Shown piece by piece: positions 27,718 to 38,345 of a stretch of 64,000 nucleotides of DNA. How positions within the stretch are numbered: the stretch's first letter is position 1; each line of letters starts with the position of its first letter. Made by a program: the position numbers and the translations under genes. The stretch lies in the NCBI RefSeq assembly GCF_004349065.1, contig NZ_SMKZ01000012.1, positions 62,001-126,000 on the forward strand. The letters run 5' to 3'. This stretch comes from Jiangella asiatica (GTDB lineage: Bacteria; Actinomycetota; Actinomycetes; Jiangellales; Jiangellaceae). Below the pieces are notes generated by a model. It was not told where the DNA came from, did not search any database, and saw only the letters and a list, made by a program, of their open reading frames with translations.

Positions 27718-31614
<3,897 letters not shown>

Positions 31615-31724
31615 CACGACTCCTTCGCCCCATTCCGACCAGATCGACCACCAGTTTTCAGAGGGTGAACCGGTCGACGCCAGGTCCGGAGCATGGCGAG
31701 GTTTGGTCATGGCATCATCTGGCC

Positions 31725-32678
31725 ATGCTGGAAGCGCTCGGGGTGATGCCGCAGGACGAGGAGCTCTACCGGGCGCTGCTGCGTCATCCCGGCGCCACCC
31801 TCGACGACCTCGCCGACGCCGGCGGGCTCGCGGTCACGACGGTGCGCCGGTCCGTCCGGCGCCTGGAGGACCTCGGCCTCGTGACCCGCTTGGCCGGCGC
31901 GCCGGTGCGGCTGATGCCGGCGCGGCCGGACGTGGCGGTCGAGGTGCTGGTCGCGCAGCGGCGGCAGGAGCTCGTCCAGGCCCAGCAGGGCGCGCGTGGC
32001 CTGCTACAGGAGATGTCGACCGAGCAGATGCCCGAGTCCGACGGGCTCATCGAGATCGTCCAGGGCCGGCAGGCGGTGGCGCACCGGTTCATGCAGATGG
32101 AGCAGACGGTGTCGCGCGAGCTGCTGGTGCTGGACCGGCCGCCGTACGCGCAGCCCGTCGAAGTGCCGAACCAGCGGGAGTACGAGCTGCTCGCCCGCGG
32201 CGTGCGCTGCCGGGGCATCTACGCGCCGGAAGGGCTGGAGCAGCCCGGCCGGCTGGCCGAGCTGCGGCGGCTCATCGAGGCCGGCGAGGAGGCTCGCACG
32301 TCGTCGGCGGTACCGCTCAAGATGGCCATCGCCGACGGCTCGGTCGCGATCCTGCCGCTCAACTTCGAGCAGATCACCGAGCAGGCGCTGGTCGTGCACG
32401 CCTCTACGCTGGTGGATGCGCTGGTGTCGCTGTTCGAGGTGCTGTGGGAGCTGGCGGTGCCGCTGGCGGGCTTCCAGTCGGTGCCGGACGGCGGGGTGGG
32501 CGGCGGGCTGCTGCAGCTGCTCGCGGCCGGCCTCGGCGACCAGGCGATCGCCCGGCAGCTGGGCGTCAGCCAGCGCACCTTGAGCCGTCAGCTGGCGACC
32601 CTGATGGAGCACCTCGGGGCCCGCACGCGGTTCCAGGCCGGCGTGCTCGCGGCCCGCCGGGGCCTCGATCGCGGGTGA
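31725..32678 (+). CDS. TrmB-like regulator with C-terminal LuxR-type HTH
   Basis: 317 residues. N-terminal winged helix (EELYRALLRHPGATLDDLAD, GGLAVTTVRRSVRRLEDLGL), a central PLD/TrmB-like domain (IEIVQGRQAVAHRFMQMEQT, LLVLDRPPYAQP), and a C-terminal LuxR HTH (AAGLGDQAIARQLGVSQRTL, SRQLATLMEHLGARTRFQAG). The two DNA-binding ends and sensor middle are a known actinobacterial design. The gene lies head-to-head with the subtilase gene and 182 bases upstream of the caspase-helicase gene on the same strand. It probably regulates the protease; control of the caspase-helicase gene is possible. Confidence 0.88.
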   Translation: MLEALGVMPQDEELYRALLRHPGATLDDLADAGGLAVTTVRRSVRRLEDLGLVTRLAGAPVRLMPARPDVAVEVLVAQRRQELVQAQQGARGLLQEMSTEQMPESDGLIEIVQGRQAVAHRFMQMEQTVSRELLVLDRPPYAQPVEVPNQREYELLARGVRCRGIYAPEGLEQPGRLAELRRLIEAGEEARTSSAVPLKMAIADGSVAILPLNFEQITEQALVVHASTLVDALVSLFEVLWELAVPLAGFQSVPDGGVGGGLLQLLAAGLGDQAIARQLGVSQRTLSRQLATLMEHLGARTRFQAGVLAARRGLDRG

Positions 32679-32860: not shown

Positions 32861-35800
32861 ATGAGCGAGCTGTCGATCCATGTGCGGACCGAGCCGGTCC
32901 GCGAACGTTTCGTTGCCGTTCGCCCGCCCGTCGCTGCCGTGCCGACGCCTGCGACGGTGGTCGCCCGCCGGCCCCTGACGGCAGCGAGCGCTCTCGAGAT
33001 CGCCGACCGGGCCGACCGCCGCCGGCTGCCCGCCGGCGAGCGCGCGGCCCTGCTCGTCGGCACCGCGGTATACGACCACGTCGACTACCCGCGGTTGTCG
33101 ACGGCGGCCGCGGGGCTCCGGCATATGCAGCAGGTACTGGAGCGGCCGGACGTCGGCATGGCCGACGTCGTCCGCGTCGTCGCCGACGCCACCCGCACCG
33201 ACATGATGCGTGCCATCGAGACGTTCCTCGACGAGCGTGAGCTCAGCGACACCGTGCTGGTGTACCTCGCGGGCTACGCGGGCGTTTCCACCCGCGACGG
33301 CCGGCTGTTCCTGGTCGCATCCGACACCGACCCCGCCGACCTCGAGGGCACCGCCGTCGCCGCGGACTTCCTGCGCCAGCGGCTGCAGGAATGCCGGGCG
33401 GCCAGCAAGGTCGTCCTGCTCGACCACTGCGCCGCCGGCGACGAGCCGGACCGGCTCTCGGTGCGTGGCCGTGAGGTGATGCCGGAACCCGCCGGGGTCT
33501 ACGTCATCTCCGCCTCGCGCACACTGCGGCCGGCCGCGGACCTGGCCGATTCCGCGTCGACCCTGGGCACCACCAGGTTCACCGAAGAGATCGTCGAGGG
33601 TCTGCTCACCGGGCGGGTGAAGTCCGGCCTCGGCGCGTGGGTGACCGCCGACGACCTCGCCGCCTACGTCGTCGACCGGCTTACCGAACGCGGCGTCCCC
33701 GCCGACCGGCTCCCGGCGACGTCGACGCTGGCGGTCTCCGGCAACCACGTCATCGCCCGGTCCGCCGTCCGGGCGCTCAGCCTGCTCGACGGGGACCGCG
33801 CGGCCGAGCGCCCGGTCACGGCCCAGCCACGGGCCGAGAACCGCCACGAGGAGCTGGCCGATCCAGGCTGGCGCGACGTGATCGCGTACTACCGCGCCTG
33901 CCTGACCGAGCCACGCGCGCCCGAGGTGCTGCCGTCGCGCGACGAGGAGTCCGCCGACTGGTTCGCCATCGGTTCCGGCCCGGAGGTGCTGCTCAGCGGC
34001 ACCGAGGCGATCGCGCGGGCACCGCAGGGGGTCGACACGTTCGACTGGAAGGAGCGTGACGTCTGGTACGGCTACCCGTTCGTCACGCTGGCCGGCGGGG
34101 GCCGCCGGCACTCCGCCAACCCGCTGGCCCCGCCGAGCGTGGCGCCGCTGCTGGTGCGGCGGGTCGAGGTGACGGTCGACGCTCGCGGCGCCGCGGCGCT
34201 GCGGCCCACCGGCCCCGTCGTGCCGCATGCGGGCGTGCTGCAGGCCTGCCTGGACGACCAGGAGGCGGCGAGTGTGCTCGCGACCTGGCGGCAGAGCTGG
34301 AAGCCCGGCGACCGCGAGCAGATGCTGGCCGCGATCCGGCAGCTCATGGGCCGCCTCGGCCTGACCGAGCTGGACGAGCTGGAGCCCGCCGAGCTGTCGG
34401 CCGACGACCTGCGCACCGCGACCCGCACCGGCATCCACAACGCCGCCTGCGTCCTCTACGTCGAGTCCGACCGGCCGACCGCCTTGGCCGTCAGTGCCGA
34501 GCTCGGCTCGGTCGCTGACCACCGGACCCAGATCCCGGGCACGGCCCTGGAGTACCTGGGCAAGCCGGTCGGCCTGCGCCGGGTGACCGGCACCGTCCCA
34601 CCACCTGTGCTCCCCGCGGAGCTGGACGAGAGCCAGCAGGCGGTGCTGACCGCCGCGATGACCCGGCCGCTCACCGTCGCCGCCGCGCCGCCCGGCACCG
34701 GCAAGGAGCGGTTGATCGTCGACGTCGTCGCGACCGCGGTCGCCGCCGGGCAGAAGGTCCTGGTCACCTCGACCGACGACGCCGCGTTGCACGAGCTGGC
34801 GCGGCGCTGCGGCGCGCTGGCGCCGGGGCTGCTGATCAAGACCGGCGACGCTCAGGCCCGAGCGGAGGAGAAGCAGCTGGTCCGCGAGCTGCTCAGGTCG
34901 ACGAAGGGCGAGCCGCGGGGTCGCCGCCGTAGCACCGTCGAGGCCGAGCTGGCCGCCGTCCGCGACGACCTGCACGAGTGGCGGCGGCTGCTGCGCGAGC
35001 GCAACGCCGTGGAGACCCGGCTGCGCAAGACGACCGCCGCCCGCGCCGCGGCGGCCGGTCGGCTGGGCCTGTCCGTCGGCGTCCTCGGCCAGGCGTGGCG
35101 CGAGCACGACGCCGCCATGCGGGAGTGGATCGACCGGGCCCGCGAGCTGACCGACGTGAAGTTCCTCGGCGGGTTCCGGCGCCGCAGCCTGGTCGTCGCC
35201 TACCTGCGGGCCCTGGGCGAAGGCGGCATCGACGCGGGCTCGCTGCGCCGGCAGCTGCTGGAGCCGGCCGCGTTCGACTCGCTGCTGCTCTTCGCCCGCG
35301 CGGAGCAGCGGCTGCGCGAGGACCGGTGGACCGTCGAGCAGCTGGGCGACGACCTCCTGGACGCCCAGGGCCGCGTGCTCACCGAGCGGTTCGGTGAGCT
35401 CTCCGCCGAACTGATGGCCGTCGTCGTCGCCGAGCAGGCGGCGGCCGCCCGCGACGAGCTGACGGCGCGGCGGCGGGCGCTGGAGCCCGGCGGCAAGGAC
35501 CGCCCGGCCAGCCAGCGGCACCTACTGGACCACCTGGGCGGGTGGGCCGTCACCGTCGACGCCGCGCAGCAGCTCGCGCTGGAGCCGGGCATGTTCGACC
35601 TCGTCGTCCTGGACGACGCGCACCGGTGCTCGGTGGCCGAGGCACTGCCGGTGCTGTTCCGGGCCCGCCGGGCCCTGGTGATCGGCGACCCGCGGCTCCG
35701 GCCGCAGCAGCCGCCACTGAGCGACCACCGCATCCGCAAGGCCCGCGAGAACGCGGGCCTCAGCGCGGCCTGGCTGGAGCACCGCCGGCTGTCGTTCGGC

Positions 35801-36787
35801 GCCCACTCCGCCTACGACGCCGCGCTGGGCAACGTCGACCGGCCGATCCTGCTCGACCAGCACGACGGCTCGCACCCGGGTATCGCCCGCATCGTCGACG
35901 AGCACTTCTACGACGCGCGGCTCACCGTCGTCACCGACGTCAGCGGGCTGCGGCGGGCCACCGATGCCGAGAGCGGCGAGGCCACGCTGCTGCTGTGGGA
36001 GGACGTCAACGGCGCGCCGGAGCGCGGCCTGAACGGCGGCTCGTGGCGCAACCAGGCCGAGATCGACCGGGTCGTGTGGGCCGTCAACGAGCTGCGCGAC
36101 CAACTGCCCAAGGACGCCGCCATCGCCGTCGTCACCCCGTTCCGGGCACAGGCGGAGGAGCTGCGCTCGCTGTTCCGGTTCGAGCCGGTGCGGGTGGTCT
36201 CCGTCGACGATGCCGAGCTGGCCGCCTGCGACGCGGTCGTCCTCTCGCTGGTGGCCGGCGAGGACATGCCGGAGCAGACCGTGCGCTGGGTCCAGGCGCA
36301 GGCGGACCTCTGGAATGCCGCCCTCGGTGCCGCCAGGTCGCACGTCGTGACGGTCGGCCAGCACGGGTTCTGGTCACGGCGCTCCGGCCTGCCGGAGCTG
36401 CTGGCCCGGCGGTCGTCGGTGCGCTCGTTCCACGTCCACCCGATCCCGCCGGCCTTCGCCGAGTCCGGTGGTGACGTCGACCCGCTGGTCGATCTGCTCT
36501 GCGAGCGGCTGACCGCCGCCGGACACGACGTCACGCCCAACGCCGTCGTCGACGGGTACCGGTGCGACGCGCTGGTGCGCACGCCGGACGAGACCGTCGC
36601 GGTGCTGCTCGACCGGGGCTGGCCGGCCGATCAGGACGCGTCGCGGCACGCACGCCTGCTGCTGCTCCGGCGCCGGCTACTGCTGGGCCTGTCCGCCTCG
36701 CCGGAGGGTCCTTCGGTGACGCGGGTGTTGCGGGTGCCGACCTGGCAGGTGCGCTCCGGCGAGCCGATCGAGGGCCTGATGGCCTGA
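32861..36787 (+). CDS. Caspase-like / SF1 helicase / nuclease-like fusion protein
   Basis: 1308 residues. Residues ~60-300 are a caspase (C14) fold: ALLVGTAVYDHVDYPRLSTA, TVLVYLAGYAGVSTRDG and SKVVLLDHCAAG, with the nucleophile Cys190 kept but the usual SGHG histidine replaced by Tyr139. A linker (~300-585) leads to an SF1/Upf1-like helicase: Walker A AAPPGTGKER (Lys615), a coiled-coil insert (~665-880), motif II LDDAH (918-921), motif III VIGDPRLRPQQPP, and late motifs VVTPFRAQAEELR and NAALGAARS. Residues ~1205-1275 resemble a Vsr/MTES_1575-type nuclease domain but keep only DGYRCDALV. ATG at 32861 with AGGGAG upstream. This architecture suggests a biological-conflict (defence/cell-death) protein; the degenerate motifs suggest altered or regulatory activity. 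Confidence 0.85.
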   Translation: MSELSIHVRTEPVRERFVAVRPPVAAVPTPATVVARRPLTAASALEIADRADRRRLPAGERAALLVGTAVYDHVDYPRLSTAAAGLRHMQQVLERPDVGMADVVRVVADATRTDMMRAIETFLDERELSDTVLVYLAGYAGVSTRDGRLFLVASDTDPADLEGTAVAADFLRQRLQECRAASKVVLLDHCAAGDEPDRLSVRGREVMPEPAGVYVISASRTLRPAADLADSASTLGTTRFTEEIVEGLLTGRVKSGLGAWVTADDLAAYVVDRLTERGVPADRLPATSTLAVSGNHVIARSAVRALSLLDGDRAAERPVTAQPRAENRHEELADPGWRDVIAYYRACLTEPRAPEVLPSRDEESADWFAIGSGPEVLLSGTEAIARAPQGVDTFDWKERDVWYGYPFVTLAGGGRRHSANPLAPPSVAPLLVRRVEVTVDARGAAALRPTGPVVPHAGVLQACLDDQEAASVLATWRQSWKPGDREQMLAAIRQLMGRLGLTELDELEPAELSADDLRTATRTGIHNAACVLYVESDRPTALAVSAELGSVADHRTQIPGTALEYLGKPVGLRRVTGTVPPPVLPAELDESQQAVLTAAMTRPLTVAAAPPGTGKERLIVDVVATAVAAGQKVLVTSTDDAALHELARRCGALAPGLLIKTGDAQARAEEKQLVRELLRSTKGEPRGRRRSTVEAELAAVRDDLHEWRRLLRERNAVETRLRKTTAARAAAAGRLGLSVGVLGQAWREHDAAMREWIDRARELTDVKFLGGFRRRSLVVAYLRALGEGGIDAGSLRRQLLEPAAFDSLLLFARAEQRLREDRWTVEQLGDDLLDAQGRVLTERFGELSAELMAVVVAEQAAAARDELTARRRALEPGGKDRPASQRHLLDHLGGWAVTVDAAQQLALEPGMFDLVVLDDAHRCSVAEALPVLFRARRALVIGDPRLRPQQPPLSDHRIRKARENAGLSAAWLEHRRLSFGAHSAYDAALGNVDRPILLDQHDGSHPGIARIVDEHFYDARLTVVTDVSGLRRATDAESGEATLLLWEDVNGAPERGLNGGSWRNQAEIDRVVWAVNELRDQLPKDAAIAVVTPFRAQAEELRSLFRFEPVRVVSVDDAELAACDAVVLSLVAGEDMPEQTVRWVQAQADLWNAALGAARSHVVTVGQHGFWSRRSGLPELLARRSSVRSFHVHPIPPAFAESGGDVDPLVDLLCERLTAAGHDVTPNAVVDGYRCDALVRTPDETVAVLLDRGWPADQDASRHARLLLLRRRLLLGLSASPEGPSVTRVLRVPTWQVRSGEPIEGLMA

Positions 36788-36873: not shown

Positions 36874-37749
36874 ATGCGCATCCTTCGCCTCGCGCTACCC
36901 GCACTTCTGGCAGTCTTGGCCTTGATGGCAGGGGCAGTGGTACCAGCGGCCTCGACCGACGTCGCGCGGTCGGCCGCTGGTGAGCCGTCGCCGCGTGACC
37001 GGCCGCTCACCGTCATGAGCTTCAACATCCACCACGGCGTCGGCCTGGACGGCATCCTCGACCTGCAGCGGGTCGCCGACGTCATCAAGACCGAGGGCGT
37101 CGACGTCGTCGGTCTGCAGGAGGTCGACCGGCACTGGGGCGAGCGCAGCGACTTCGTCGACCAGGCCGCCTGGCTCGCCAGCGAGCTCGACATGCACGTG
37201 GTCTACGGCGCCAACCTCGACCTGGACCCGCTCGAGCCGGGCGCGCCGCGCCGGCAGTACGGCACCGCGATCCTCAGCGAGCGCCCCATCCGCGAGTGGA
37301 GCAACACCTTCCTGCCCAGGTACGAAGGCCACGAGCAGCGCGGGCTGCTGAGCGCCCGGATCAACGTCCGCGGCGTCTGGGTGACCGTCTACAACACCCA
37401 CCTACAGCACAACGACGCCAACGAGCGGCTGGAGCAGGTGGCCGCGATCCAGGAGCTGATCGGCACCCCGGACCACTCCGTGGTTCTGCTCGGCGACCTC
37501 AACGCCACGCCGCAGTCCCCGGAGATCCAGGAGTTGGTCGACGACCTGGTCGACACCTGGGAGGCCGCCGGAGTCGGCGACGGCGACACCTACCCGGCCG
37601 AGGACCCCAACGCCCGCATCGACTACGTCCTCACCTCCGGCGGCGTCATCGCGCGCACAGCCGCCGTGGTGGCCACCGACGCGTCGGACCACCTCCCGGT
37701 GCGTGCCGACATCCTGCTCCCCGGTGACCGCGTCGGCCTCGGCAGCTGA
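36874..37749 (+). CDS. Secreted endonuclease/exonuclease/phosphatase-family hydrolase
   Basis: 291 residues. Signal peptide LRLALPALLAVLALMAGAVV, then an EEP domain: VMSFNIHHGVG (metal Asn), VVGLQEVDRHWGER (metal Glu), VYNTHLQH (catalytic His), VVLLGDLNATPQSPE (Asp/Asn), and TDASDHLPVRADI at the end. All key metal and catalytic residues are present. The family cuts phosphodiesters in nucleic acids, sphingolipids or inositol phosphates; with a signal peptide it acts outside the cell. ATG at 36874 after GAGAGG. It lies 86 bases downstream of the caspase-helicase gene. Confidence 0.9.
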   Translation: MRILRLALPALLAVLALMAGAVVPAASTDVARSAAGEPSPRDRPLTVMSFNIHHGVGLDGILDLQRVADVIKTEGVDVVGLQEVDRHWGERSDFVDQAAWLASELDMHVVYGANLDLDPLEPGAPRRQYGTAILSERPIREWSNTFLPRYEGHEQRGLLSARINVRGVWVTVYNTHLQHNDANERLEQVAAIQELIGTPDHSVVLLGDLNATPQSPEIQELVDDLVDTWEAAGVGDGDTYPAEDPNARIDYVLTSGGVIARTAAVVATDASDHLPVRADILLPGDRVGLGS

Positions 37750-37809: not shown

Positions 37810-37898
37810 GAATTCGAGCAACCGCGGGATGGTTCCGGTCCGCGTATCGTGGCGGTATGACTCGACGGTCAGAAGAACATCGAGCCGAGGAGGAACCG

Positions 37899-38345
37899 AT
37901 GACGACGGTCACGGTGCCCGACGAGCTCCTGACCATCGAGGATTGGGATGCACTCGAGGAGACTGACGCCAATCGGCGCTGGCAGCTCGCCGACGGTCTG
38001 GTCGCCGTGGCGCCGTTTCCGTCGCTCGACCACCAGGAGATCGTCACCAACCTCACCATCTGGTTGCGTGAGCACCTACCTGCGGATGTGCGCGCCATCC
38101 CCGGTGTCGCGGTCACCATCGAGGCGGGCTTTCCACCGACGGTTCGCGGGCCGGACGTCACGGTTCTCGTGCGGGCTCGGCCGAGAACGAATGTGCTGCG
38201 AGTCGACCCTGCGGACGTGCGGCTGGTCGCCGAGTTCGTCTCACCGGGGTCGCGCCGGCTCGATCGGGTGACGAAGGTGTCCGAGTACCAAGACGTCGGC
38301 ATCCCGCTGACCCTCGACGTCGGTGCGCTGCTGACGCTCGACTGA
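37899..38345 (+). CDS. Uma2-family (DUF820) nuclease-like protein, internally shortened
   Basis: 148 residues against about 185-200 for the family. The PD-(D/E)XK core is present: [20 protein letters not shown], the [10 protein letters not shown] aspartate and [18 protein letters not shown] with the E-x-K-like acid and lysine. After [11 protein letters not shown] the usual HYWVVD strand is missing and the frame jumps to [13 protein letters not shown], which resembles the normal C-terminal end. An in-frame deletion of ~40 codons is the likely cause. ATG at 37899 follows GAGGAGG. Uma2 genes are common in multicellular bacteria; function is unproven. Confidence 0.72.

What the first reader, a model, noticed from the sequence alone, without database searches (positions are those of the whole stretch)
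32861..36787. Caspase-like/SF1-helicase/nuclease-like fusion with a substituted catalytic histidine
Seen: a 1308-residue protein with a C14 caspase fold that keeps Cys190 (LLDHCAAG) but has Tyr139 where caspases have His (YLAGYAG instead of SGHG). It continues into an SF1/Upf1-like helicase with intact Walker A (Lys615) and altered motif II (DDAH), then a Vsr-like nuclease-like end keeping only one expected acid. Known: bacterial caspases fused to NTPase modules occur in actinobacterial conflict systems that may trigger cell death. Inference: this is such a defence protein whose protease centre is inactive, or uses another residue. A helicase-gated pseudo-caspase would be a distinctive variant.
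Basis: partly seen in the sequence, partly recalled or inferred. Interest (0 to 1): 0.82.

Follow-up and report, generated by a model that had tools for sequence, protein, structure and literature searches.

The report
Dead caspase–helicase protein kept for life
A large protein that appears to descend from a bacterial self-destruct or defence enzyme has lost key residues of its protease part and its helicase part, yet related soil bacteria keep it intact as an ordinary resident gene, which suggests that evolution turned a weapon into a non-enzymatic part with a new job.

Summary
Window 32861-36787 encodes a 1308-residue protein with a caspase fold (closest solved structure MALT1) whose catalytic His is Tyr139, then a complete UPF1-like SF1 helicase fold. 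The C-terminal "Vsr-like nuclease" is unproven. The genus is Jiangella. This is no decayed allele: all 12 genomes held of the genus and 2 relatives have the gene, all 14 with Tyr; the site is conserved in the 8 loci tested; dN/dS lies within the range of five neighbouring genes. The helicase is also disabled: Walker A Ser/Thr in 0 of 14, motif II Glu in 1 of 14, motif V QGxE in 0 of 14. Four intact relatives (three Nocardiopsis loci, one other genus) keep these residues; the Nocardiopsis ones follow a small gene, probably EACC1-type. A separate inactivation occurred in Nocardiopsidaceae (Marinitenerispora: His to Tyr, Cys lost; Nocardiopsis: caspase gone); one common dead clade is rejected (AU p 0.0007), though one Nocardiopsis copy is frame-broken. 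Best reading: an EACC1-type caspase-helicase effector became, at least twice, catalytically dead; in Jiangella it is a resident scaffold or sensor. Its role is unknown. Bacterial pseudo-caspases are known, so this is a new variant of a known kind.

The parts
32861..36787 (+). gene for the 1308-aa pseudo-caspase / pseudo-helicase protein (start ATG 32861, stop TGA)
   Evidence: start supported by the conserved N-terminus in the clade
33026..33760 (+). caspase-fold domain, residues 56-300
33275..33277 (+). Tyr139 in the place of the catalytic His; Tyr in 13 of 13 clade sequences that hold the region in one frame, and in the separate piece of G002 (L096)
33422..33430 (+). Asp188 (invariant in the 21 caspase domains aligned) to Cys190 (catalytic Cys position; kept in 12 of 13 clade sequences and in L096, Gly in L011)
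33077..33079 (+). His73, clade-specific invariant His in the loop after strand 1; possible but untested replacement base
33854..36451 (+). UPF1/IGHMBP2-like SF1 helicase fold, residues 332-1197
34685..34708 (+). Walker A, residues 609-616, APPGTGKE: Lys kept (12 of 14 in clade), Ser/Thr lost (0 of 14 keep it)
35612..35623 (+). motif II DDAH, residues 918-921; catalytic Glu kept in 1 of 14
36209..36232 (+). remnant of motif V, residues 1117-1124; Gln and Glu of QGxE absent in 14 of 14
36314..36337 (+). remnant of motif VI, residues 1152-1159; first Arg is Ala in the window, Arg in 12 of 14 clade members
36473..36760 (+). C-terminal alpha-beta-beta-beta-alpha-beta domain, residues 1205-1300; nuclease (MTES_1575/Vsr) identity unproven
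36874..37749 (+). adjacent gene for an endonuclease/exonuclease/phosphatase-family protein with a signal-peptide-like start (my reading); next to the gene in 8 of 8 Jiangellaceae loci with long flanks

Best explanation
The gene encodes a resident, non-catalytic descendant of an EACC1-type caspase-helicase effector. Shown by computation: both folds are intact; the protease His is replaced throughout the clade; the ATPase lost the Walker A Ser/Thr, the motif II Glu (13 of 14) and the QGxE of motif V; the gene is kept under ordinary purifying selection at one chromosomal site; a separate lineage lost the same functions. Inferred: the protein neither cleaves peptides nor translocates on nucleic acid. 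It acts by binding: the pseudo-caspase domain as a peptide or partner docking surface (the pocket acid Asp188 is retained), the UPF1-like module as a nucleic-acid clamp or sensor without ATP-driven movement. Its target and physiological role are unknown.
For: Gene in 12 of 12 genus genomes and 2 of 10 other Jiangellaceae genomes, 60-82% identity. Tyr139 in 13 of 13, plus the separate G002 piece. The 17 other EACC1-type caspases over the family cut-off that I could align (of 19) keep His and Cys. Helicase motif losses in 14 members against 4 intact relatives. dN/dS 0.16-0.25 in six close pairs, caspase domain 0.07-0.23; median 0.26 against 0.19-0.32 for five neighbouring genes. Conserved gene order. 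No active caspase found beside it: NF047832 matches once in each of 4 Jiangella genomes searched; PF00656 in 0 of 12 (that model does not ring on this protein either). Separate inactivation in Nocardiopsidaceae.
Against: Cys190 and Lys615 are kept in most members (12 of 13 and 12 of 14), which a wholly free pseudoenzyme need not do. His73 is a new clade-invariant His after strand 1 and might replace the base. Lack of activity is read from sequence only. 527 of 1308 positions are invariant in the clade, so invariance of Tyr139 alone is unremarkable. In three more distant pairs dN/dS is 0.33-0.47. In the parallel Nocardiopsidaceae lineage one copy (N. eucommiae, L052) is split over several reading frames, so decay rather than a kept role may explain part of that lineage.
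Confidence: 0.68

Rival explanations
1. An active defence protein whose cysteine protease works with another base (Tyr139 itself or the new His73), still triggered by the nucleic-acid-binding module.
For: Cys190 kept in 12 of 13 members; Asp188 invariant; His73 invariant in the clade but not found at that position in the four intact relatives; caspase domain under strong constraint.
Against: L011 has Gly at 190 with Tyr139 and His73 kept; in Marinitenerispora the same His-to-Tyr change goes with loss of Cys; the ATPase motifs decay as well; no EACC1 partner found at the locus.
Confidence: 0.13
2. A still functional anti-phage sensor or decoy: the dead domains imitate targets of phage inhibitors or bind phage nucleic acid, and another cell component carries out the response.
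For: Profile similarity of the helicase to Mokosh MkoA (E 1.4e-28), Hhe and ProA defence helicases; kinship with a conflict system; a variable Uma2 gene (Pfam: putative restriction endonuclease) lies two genes downstream.
Against: Conserved chromosomal site among genes of ordinary enzyme families and constraint like that of neighbours, with faster change in the N-terminus and linker only. Neighbours were not scanned against the defence library.
Confidence: 0.15
3. A gene in slow decay after loss of selection.
For: Walker A Lys lost in 2 of 14 and Cys190 in 1 of 13 members; several motif V positions vary inside the clade; one Nocardiopsis copy of the other dead lineage is frame-broken.
Against: The 13 clade copies that lie on one contig each have one open frame; dN/dS inside the range of neighbouring genes; 208 derived positions fixed across the clade.
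Confidence: 0.03
4. A cFLIP-like partner that regulates an active caspase.
For: Precedent of pseudo-caspases as partners (passages of PMC6426788 name cFLIP and TbMC4).
Against: NF047832 matches once in each of the 4 Jiangella genomes searched with it; PF00656 in 0 of 12, one control genome positive, though this model is blind to EACC1-type members such as this one.
Confidence: 0.02

Closest known systems
EACC1-caspase two-gene conflict system (System 4 of Kaur et al. 2020, PMC7159879; section 33 and passages read, source data not seen)
   Same: N-terminal caspase of the EACC1-associated type fused to a variable C-terminal module; intact Nocardiopsis relatives follow a small gene that is probably EACC1-type
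   Different: Dyad His replaced, EACC1 partner not found, conserved chromosomal site, ATPase motifs lost
Bacterial pseudo-orthocaspases (Klemencic et al. 2019, PMC6426788; abstract and passages read)
   Same: Caspase p20 fold with His replaced by Tyr; in most unicellular cyanobacteria also the only orthocaspase of the genome
   Different: There the commonest variant is Tyr-Ser; YN and a trypsin-fused QC variant also occur. Here Tyr-Cys, fused to a UPF1-like helicase that is also disabled; only 3 of 636 actinobacterial sequences were pseudo in that survey
UPF1/IGHMBP2/Senataxin-type SF1 helicases
   Same: Complete fold over residues 332-1197, Z about 27
   Different: Walker A Ser/Thr, motif II Glu and motif V QGxE missing
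Mokosh helicase MkoA (PADLOC)
   Same: Best PADLOC match, to the helicase part, E 1.4e-28
   Different: No Mokosh partner looked for; caspase N-terminus; ATPase motifs lost

Membership tests
EACC1-associated caspase (NF047832) | score over the curated cut-off of 140 bits | tested here: not met
   Window protein 127.9 bits, 133.5 as genome frame; orthologues in G001, G002, G011 do pass with 142.8-145.8
EACC1-associated caspase (NF047832) | His-Cys catalytic dyad | tested here: not met
   Tyr139 / Cys190; 17 of 17 other over-cut-off loci aligned keep both; 2 further over-cut-off places had no locus and were not examined
EACC1-caspase two-gene system | EACC1 gene directly upstream | tested here: not met
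   8 EACC1-type queries give no hit at E<=0.01 in the window or in 22 Jiangellaceae loci; PF19953 in 0 of 12 genus genomes, no control rang; the model does detect EACC1 upstream of other caspases but misses divergent ones
Caspase fold (C14 clan) | caspase fold | tested here: met
   pLDDT 81.6; MALT1 Z 23, caspases-4/-7/-9/-11 Z about 20-22
Pseudo-orthocaspase | p20 fold lacking the His-Cys dyad | tested here: met
   absence of proteolysis itself not testable here
UPF1-like SF1 helicase | UPF1-like fold | tested here: met
UPF1-like SF1 helicase | intact ATPase motifs I, II, V, VI | tested here: not met
MTES_1575 / Vsr-like nuclease | significant profile match and PD-(D/E)XK residues | tested here: inconclusive
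   E 0.047-0.062, under cut-off; secondary structure order fits; Asp1236 and Asp1251 invariant among 11 aligned
Mokosh defence system | complete system with partner gene | not tested
   only the helicase profile match was seen

The most novel reading that the evidence does not exclude
A catalytically complete, probably accessory conflict effector (EACC1-type caspase fused to a UPF1-like helicase) was converted at least twice, in Jiangellaceae and in Nocardiopsidaceae, into a catalytically dead resident gene with a new binding-only cellular role, protease and ATPase both being lost while the fold was kept.
Probability: 0.4. Interest if true: 0.76.

Novelty: new variant of a known kind. Interest (0 to 1): 0.58.

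Why it matters
Bacterial pseudo-caspases are known, best in Cyanobacteria and Alphaproteobacteria. Here a genus keeps, as the only caspase homologue that my searches found, a giant protein in which protease and helicase have both lost catalytic residues while the folds and the gene's chromosomal site are conserved, and intact relatives exist for comparison. The parallel losses in Nocardiopsidaceae make the question of how defence effectors become resident cell components testable by deletion, pull-down and reconstitution in culturable actinomycetes.

Tried and rejected
Decayed allele: rejected for the Jiangella clade by distribution and dN/dS. Regulator of an active paralogous caspase: no such paralogue found. 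Plasmid- or phage-borne: no plasmid record covers 80% of the protein (7 partial hits), one partial phage hit. One single loss of His shared by Jiangella and Marinitenerispora: AU test p 0.0007; I had seen the quick tree before naming the group, so the p value is optimistic, but long-branch attraction would pull the two dead groups together, not apart; the test used 19 of the 29 rows (9 of 14 clade members). Nuclease identity: not settled. EACC1 homology of the Nocardiopsis upstream gene: no Pfam EACC1 hit; profile comparison with seven EACC1-type genes gave probability 10%, E 0.003 over 34 columns, and with a three-row set of which two pass Pfam EACC1 57%, E 1e-4 over 97 columns; likely, not proven. 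The upstream gene of L015 gave no Pfam hit, and that of L043 did not resemble them. Neighbourhoods of intact Nocardiopsis copies: not wholly different; L040 and L042 share one downstream gene, L040 and L041 share two genes on opposite sides, so 'accessory' rests mainly on patchy presence (NF047832 in G057 but not in G089 of the same genus) and I lowered the novel case from 0.45 to 0.40. Below-cut-off NF047832 rows: L098, L099, L109, L110 keep His and Cys; L100, a partial match, shows neither. Gene absence in the g5 genomes: around the orthologue of the 36874 gene no other window gene was found, so loss versus gain there is open. A literature search with 'pseudocaspase' listed only unrelated papers. 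Rows: one search left out L006, L007, L009, L013, L018, L019, L022; L012 lacks the caspase part because of a contig edge. In one search two genes gave 6 of 10 pairs, because not all five loci held them.
Full report
WHAT IS THERE. The window is part of a 7.03 Mb genome. The ORF 32861-36787 encodes 1308 residues with no stop. A GTG start 45 bases upstream is possible, but the conserved N-terminus supports ATG 32861. NCBIfam caspase_w_EACC1 covers residues 62-276 at E 3.7e-37, 127.9 bits, below its cut-off of 140; three orthologues exceed that cut-off. Pfam AAA_11 and AAA_12 pass their cut-offs; MTES_1575 does not.

FOLDS. Residues 50-330 give a confident caspase model (pLDDT 81.6, pTM 0.82). MALT1 paracaspase leads both structure comparisons (Foldseek E 9.6e-13; VIA Z 23.0, rmsd 2.0, 194 aligned). 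Residues 330-1308 give pLDDT 84, pTM 0.82 and match UPF1 and IGHMBP2 at Z 26.6-27.0 with rmsd 3.8-4.2 over 457-460 residues, spanning protein residues 332-1197. The C-terminal 110 residues have an alpha-beta-beta-beta-alpha-beta order that would suit a PD-(D/E)XK or Vsr-like fold (recalled), but only 1 of 21 family members matches MTES_1575 at E<=0.1, so I leave it open.

TYR139 IS FIXED. Elsewhere in the class sample (77 genomes) only G057 and G058 hold near-full-length relatives (34% identity). Tyr stands at 139 in 13 of 13 clade sequences that hold the region in one frame and in the separate piece of G002 (L096). Cys190 is kept in 12 of these 13 and in L096; L011 has Gly. Baseline: of 22 places over the NF047832 cut-off in 98 class genomes, 3 are Jiangella; 17 of the other 19 had loci that I aligned, and these 17 keep His and Cys.

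THE HELICASE IS DISABLED TOO. Against four intact relatives (L015, L016, L040, L041), which carry GKS, DEAS, FQGGE and NVA[IV]TRAR, the 14 clade members show: Walker A Lys 12 of 14, but the following Ser/Thr 0 of 14 (Asp or Glu in 12); motif II Glu 1 of 14; motif V Gln and Glu 0 of 14; motif VI first Arg 12 of 14 (the window has Ala), second Arg 13 of 14. Motif IV TPFRAQ and the GD of motif III are invariant. That these residues serve Mg-ATP binding and hydrolysis in SF1 helicases is recalled knowledge.

IT IS UNDER SELECTION. Nei-Gojobori dN/dS over the whole gene is 0.16-0.25 in the six closer of nine pairs computed and 0.33-0.47 in the three more distant ones. In the six, the caspase domain is 0.07-0.23, while the linker 301-333 reaches 1.10 in one pair. 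For five Jiangella loci the gene's median is 0.26, against 0.32, 0.21, 0.19, 0.29 and 0.28 for five neighbouring genes. In the 8 Jiangellaceae loci with long flanks, the endonuclease/exonuclease/phosphatase gene and the alcohol dehydrogenase follow in 8 of 8; of the 7 with a 5' flank, the M23 peptidase gene precedes in 7 and the pyridine nucleotide-disulphide oxidoreductase in 6 (in the seventh, L034, the flank ends inside the peptidase gene). The next gene starts 84-87 bases downstream in 9 of 14 by first long frame; no terminator-like site was found around the gap. The regulator 31725-32678 and the subtilase 27718-31710 vary among loci.

INTACT RELATIVES LOOK LIKE AN EACC1 SYSTEM. In Nocardiopsis L040, L041 and L042 (L042 is the contig of L016) the intact gene follows a small gene, those of L041 and L042 being 66% and 75% identical to that of L040. 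Its profile aligns over 97 columns, 30% identity, E 1e-4, probability 57%, with a three-row set of which two pass Pfam EACC1; against seven other EACC1-type genes the match is poor (probability 10%, 34 columns), and Pfam EACC1 itself does not hit it. The wider neighbourhoods are only partly shared (one gene between L040 and L042, two between L040 and L041). Presence is patchy: G057 has an NF047832 match, G089 of the same genus has none. None of eight EACC1-type proteins hits the window or 22 Jiangellaceae loci at E<=0.01, and the Pfam model finds none in 12 genus genomes, in a search where no control rang.

A SEPARATE INACTIVATION. Marinitenerispora (L043) has GYG for SGHG, LLDCR for LLDCC, and no Walker Lys; Nocardiopsis prasina (L045) and G089 (L017) lack the caspase domain and the Walker Lys. 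L045, L052 and G089 share a site next to a PucR-type regulator and a Fapy/H2TH DNA glycosylase; in L043 the same two genes lie about 8 kb upstream and 6 kb downstream. N. prasina has both an intact copy (L040) and a degenerate one (L045). Against a kept role: the N. eucommiae copy (L052) is split over several reading frames, and L045 against L017 gives dN/dS 0.44 at dS 0.71, much like the distant Jiangellaceae pair of the same dS (0.44). In the tree (19 rows, 9 of 14 clade members) the dead Nocardiopsidaceae sequences sit beside the intact Nocardiopsis copies with 100/100 support, apart from the Jiangellaceae clade; holding all degenerate sequences together costs 37 log-likelihood units, AU p 0.0007. 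L015 is the nearest intact sequence to Jiangellaceae in the quick tree (82% SH-aLRT), unresolved in the careful one. That the losses were independent also assumes that lost residues were not regained.

MECHANISM. Shown: folds, missing residues, selection, site, separate losses. Inferred: no proteolysis, no translocation, action by binding. Asp188, invariant in 21 caspase domains, corresponds by position two before the Cys to an acid of the substrate pocket in metacaspases (recalled), which suits a peptide-binding pseudo-protease. This echoes Kaur et al. (PMC7159879, passages read), who report about 70% inactive caspase domains in the effector position of vWA systems and propose dominant-negative or peptide-binding roles. 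A cFLIP-like role on an active partner is unlikely, since no second caspase was found.

NOVELTY. Pseudo-orthocaspases with Tyr for His are in print (PMC6426788, abstract and passages: 8.6% of bacterial caspase homologues, 3 of 636 in Actinobacteria). EACC1-caspase fusions to up to 50 domains are in print (PMC7159879, section 33; its text names neither Jiangella nor Upf1; its source data were not seen). In the searches 'EACC1 + caspase' (2 papers), 'Jiangella + caspase' (3 papers, none about this by title and start of abstract), 'caspase-like, helicase, anti-phage, bacterial caspase' (8 papers listed) and 'catalytically inactive, caspase domain, helicase and others' (4 papers listed) I saw in the listings no description of a caspase-helicase in which both are dead and the gene is resident; of these papers I opened only PMC7159879. 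Many subscription papers are not held. Hence: new variant of a known kind.

Noticed in passing
L043 9992-13768: Marinitenerispora sediminis caspase-helicase protein with Tyr for His, Arg for Cys and no Walker A Lys: a separate pseudoenzyme.
   Followed up: yes
L045 9833-12973, L052, L146: Nocardiopsidaceae carry a caspase-less, degenerate helicase protein between a PucR-type regulator and a Fapy/H2TH DNA glycosylase; N. prasina also holds an intact caspase-helicase (L040); the N. eucommiae copy (L052) is frame-broken.
   Followed up: partly
window 31725-32678: Regulator with a winged helix-turn-helix (TrmB/MarR-like) N-terminus and a LuxR-like C-terminus between the subtilase and the pseudo-caspase gene; found full-length in only some Jiangella loci.
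   Followed up: partly
window 27718-31710 (-): 1330-aa subtilase with a PA domain, present in some Jiangella loci and absent in others.
   Followed up: no
window 32906-32926 (residues 16-22): Short N-terminal motif RFVAV[RK]P, conserved in the clade ahead of a variable stretch; possible partner-binding motif. A genome search for other copies could not be run.
   Followed up: no
L044, L046, L048: Relatives in proteobacterial metagenome-assembled genomes whose match begins at residue 312-337; two caspase-domain queries found nothing in these loci. Possible caspase-free branch of the helicase module.
   Followed up: partly
window 37857-38345: Uma2-family putative endonuclease gene, 46-61% identical in five of eight loci with long flanks and not found in the other three.
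   Followed up: no
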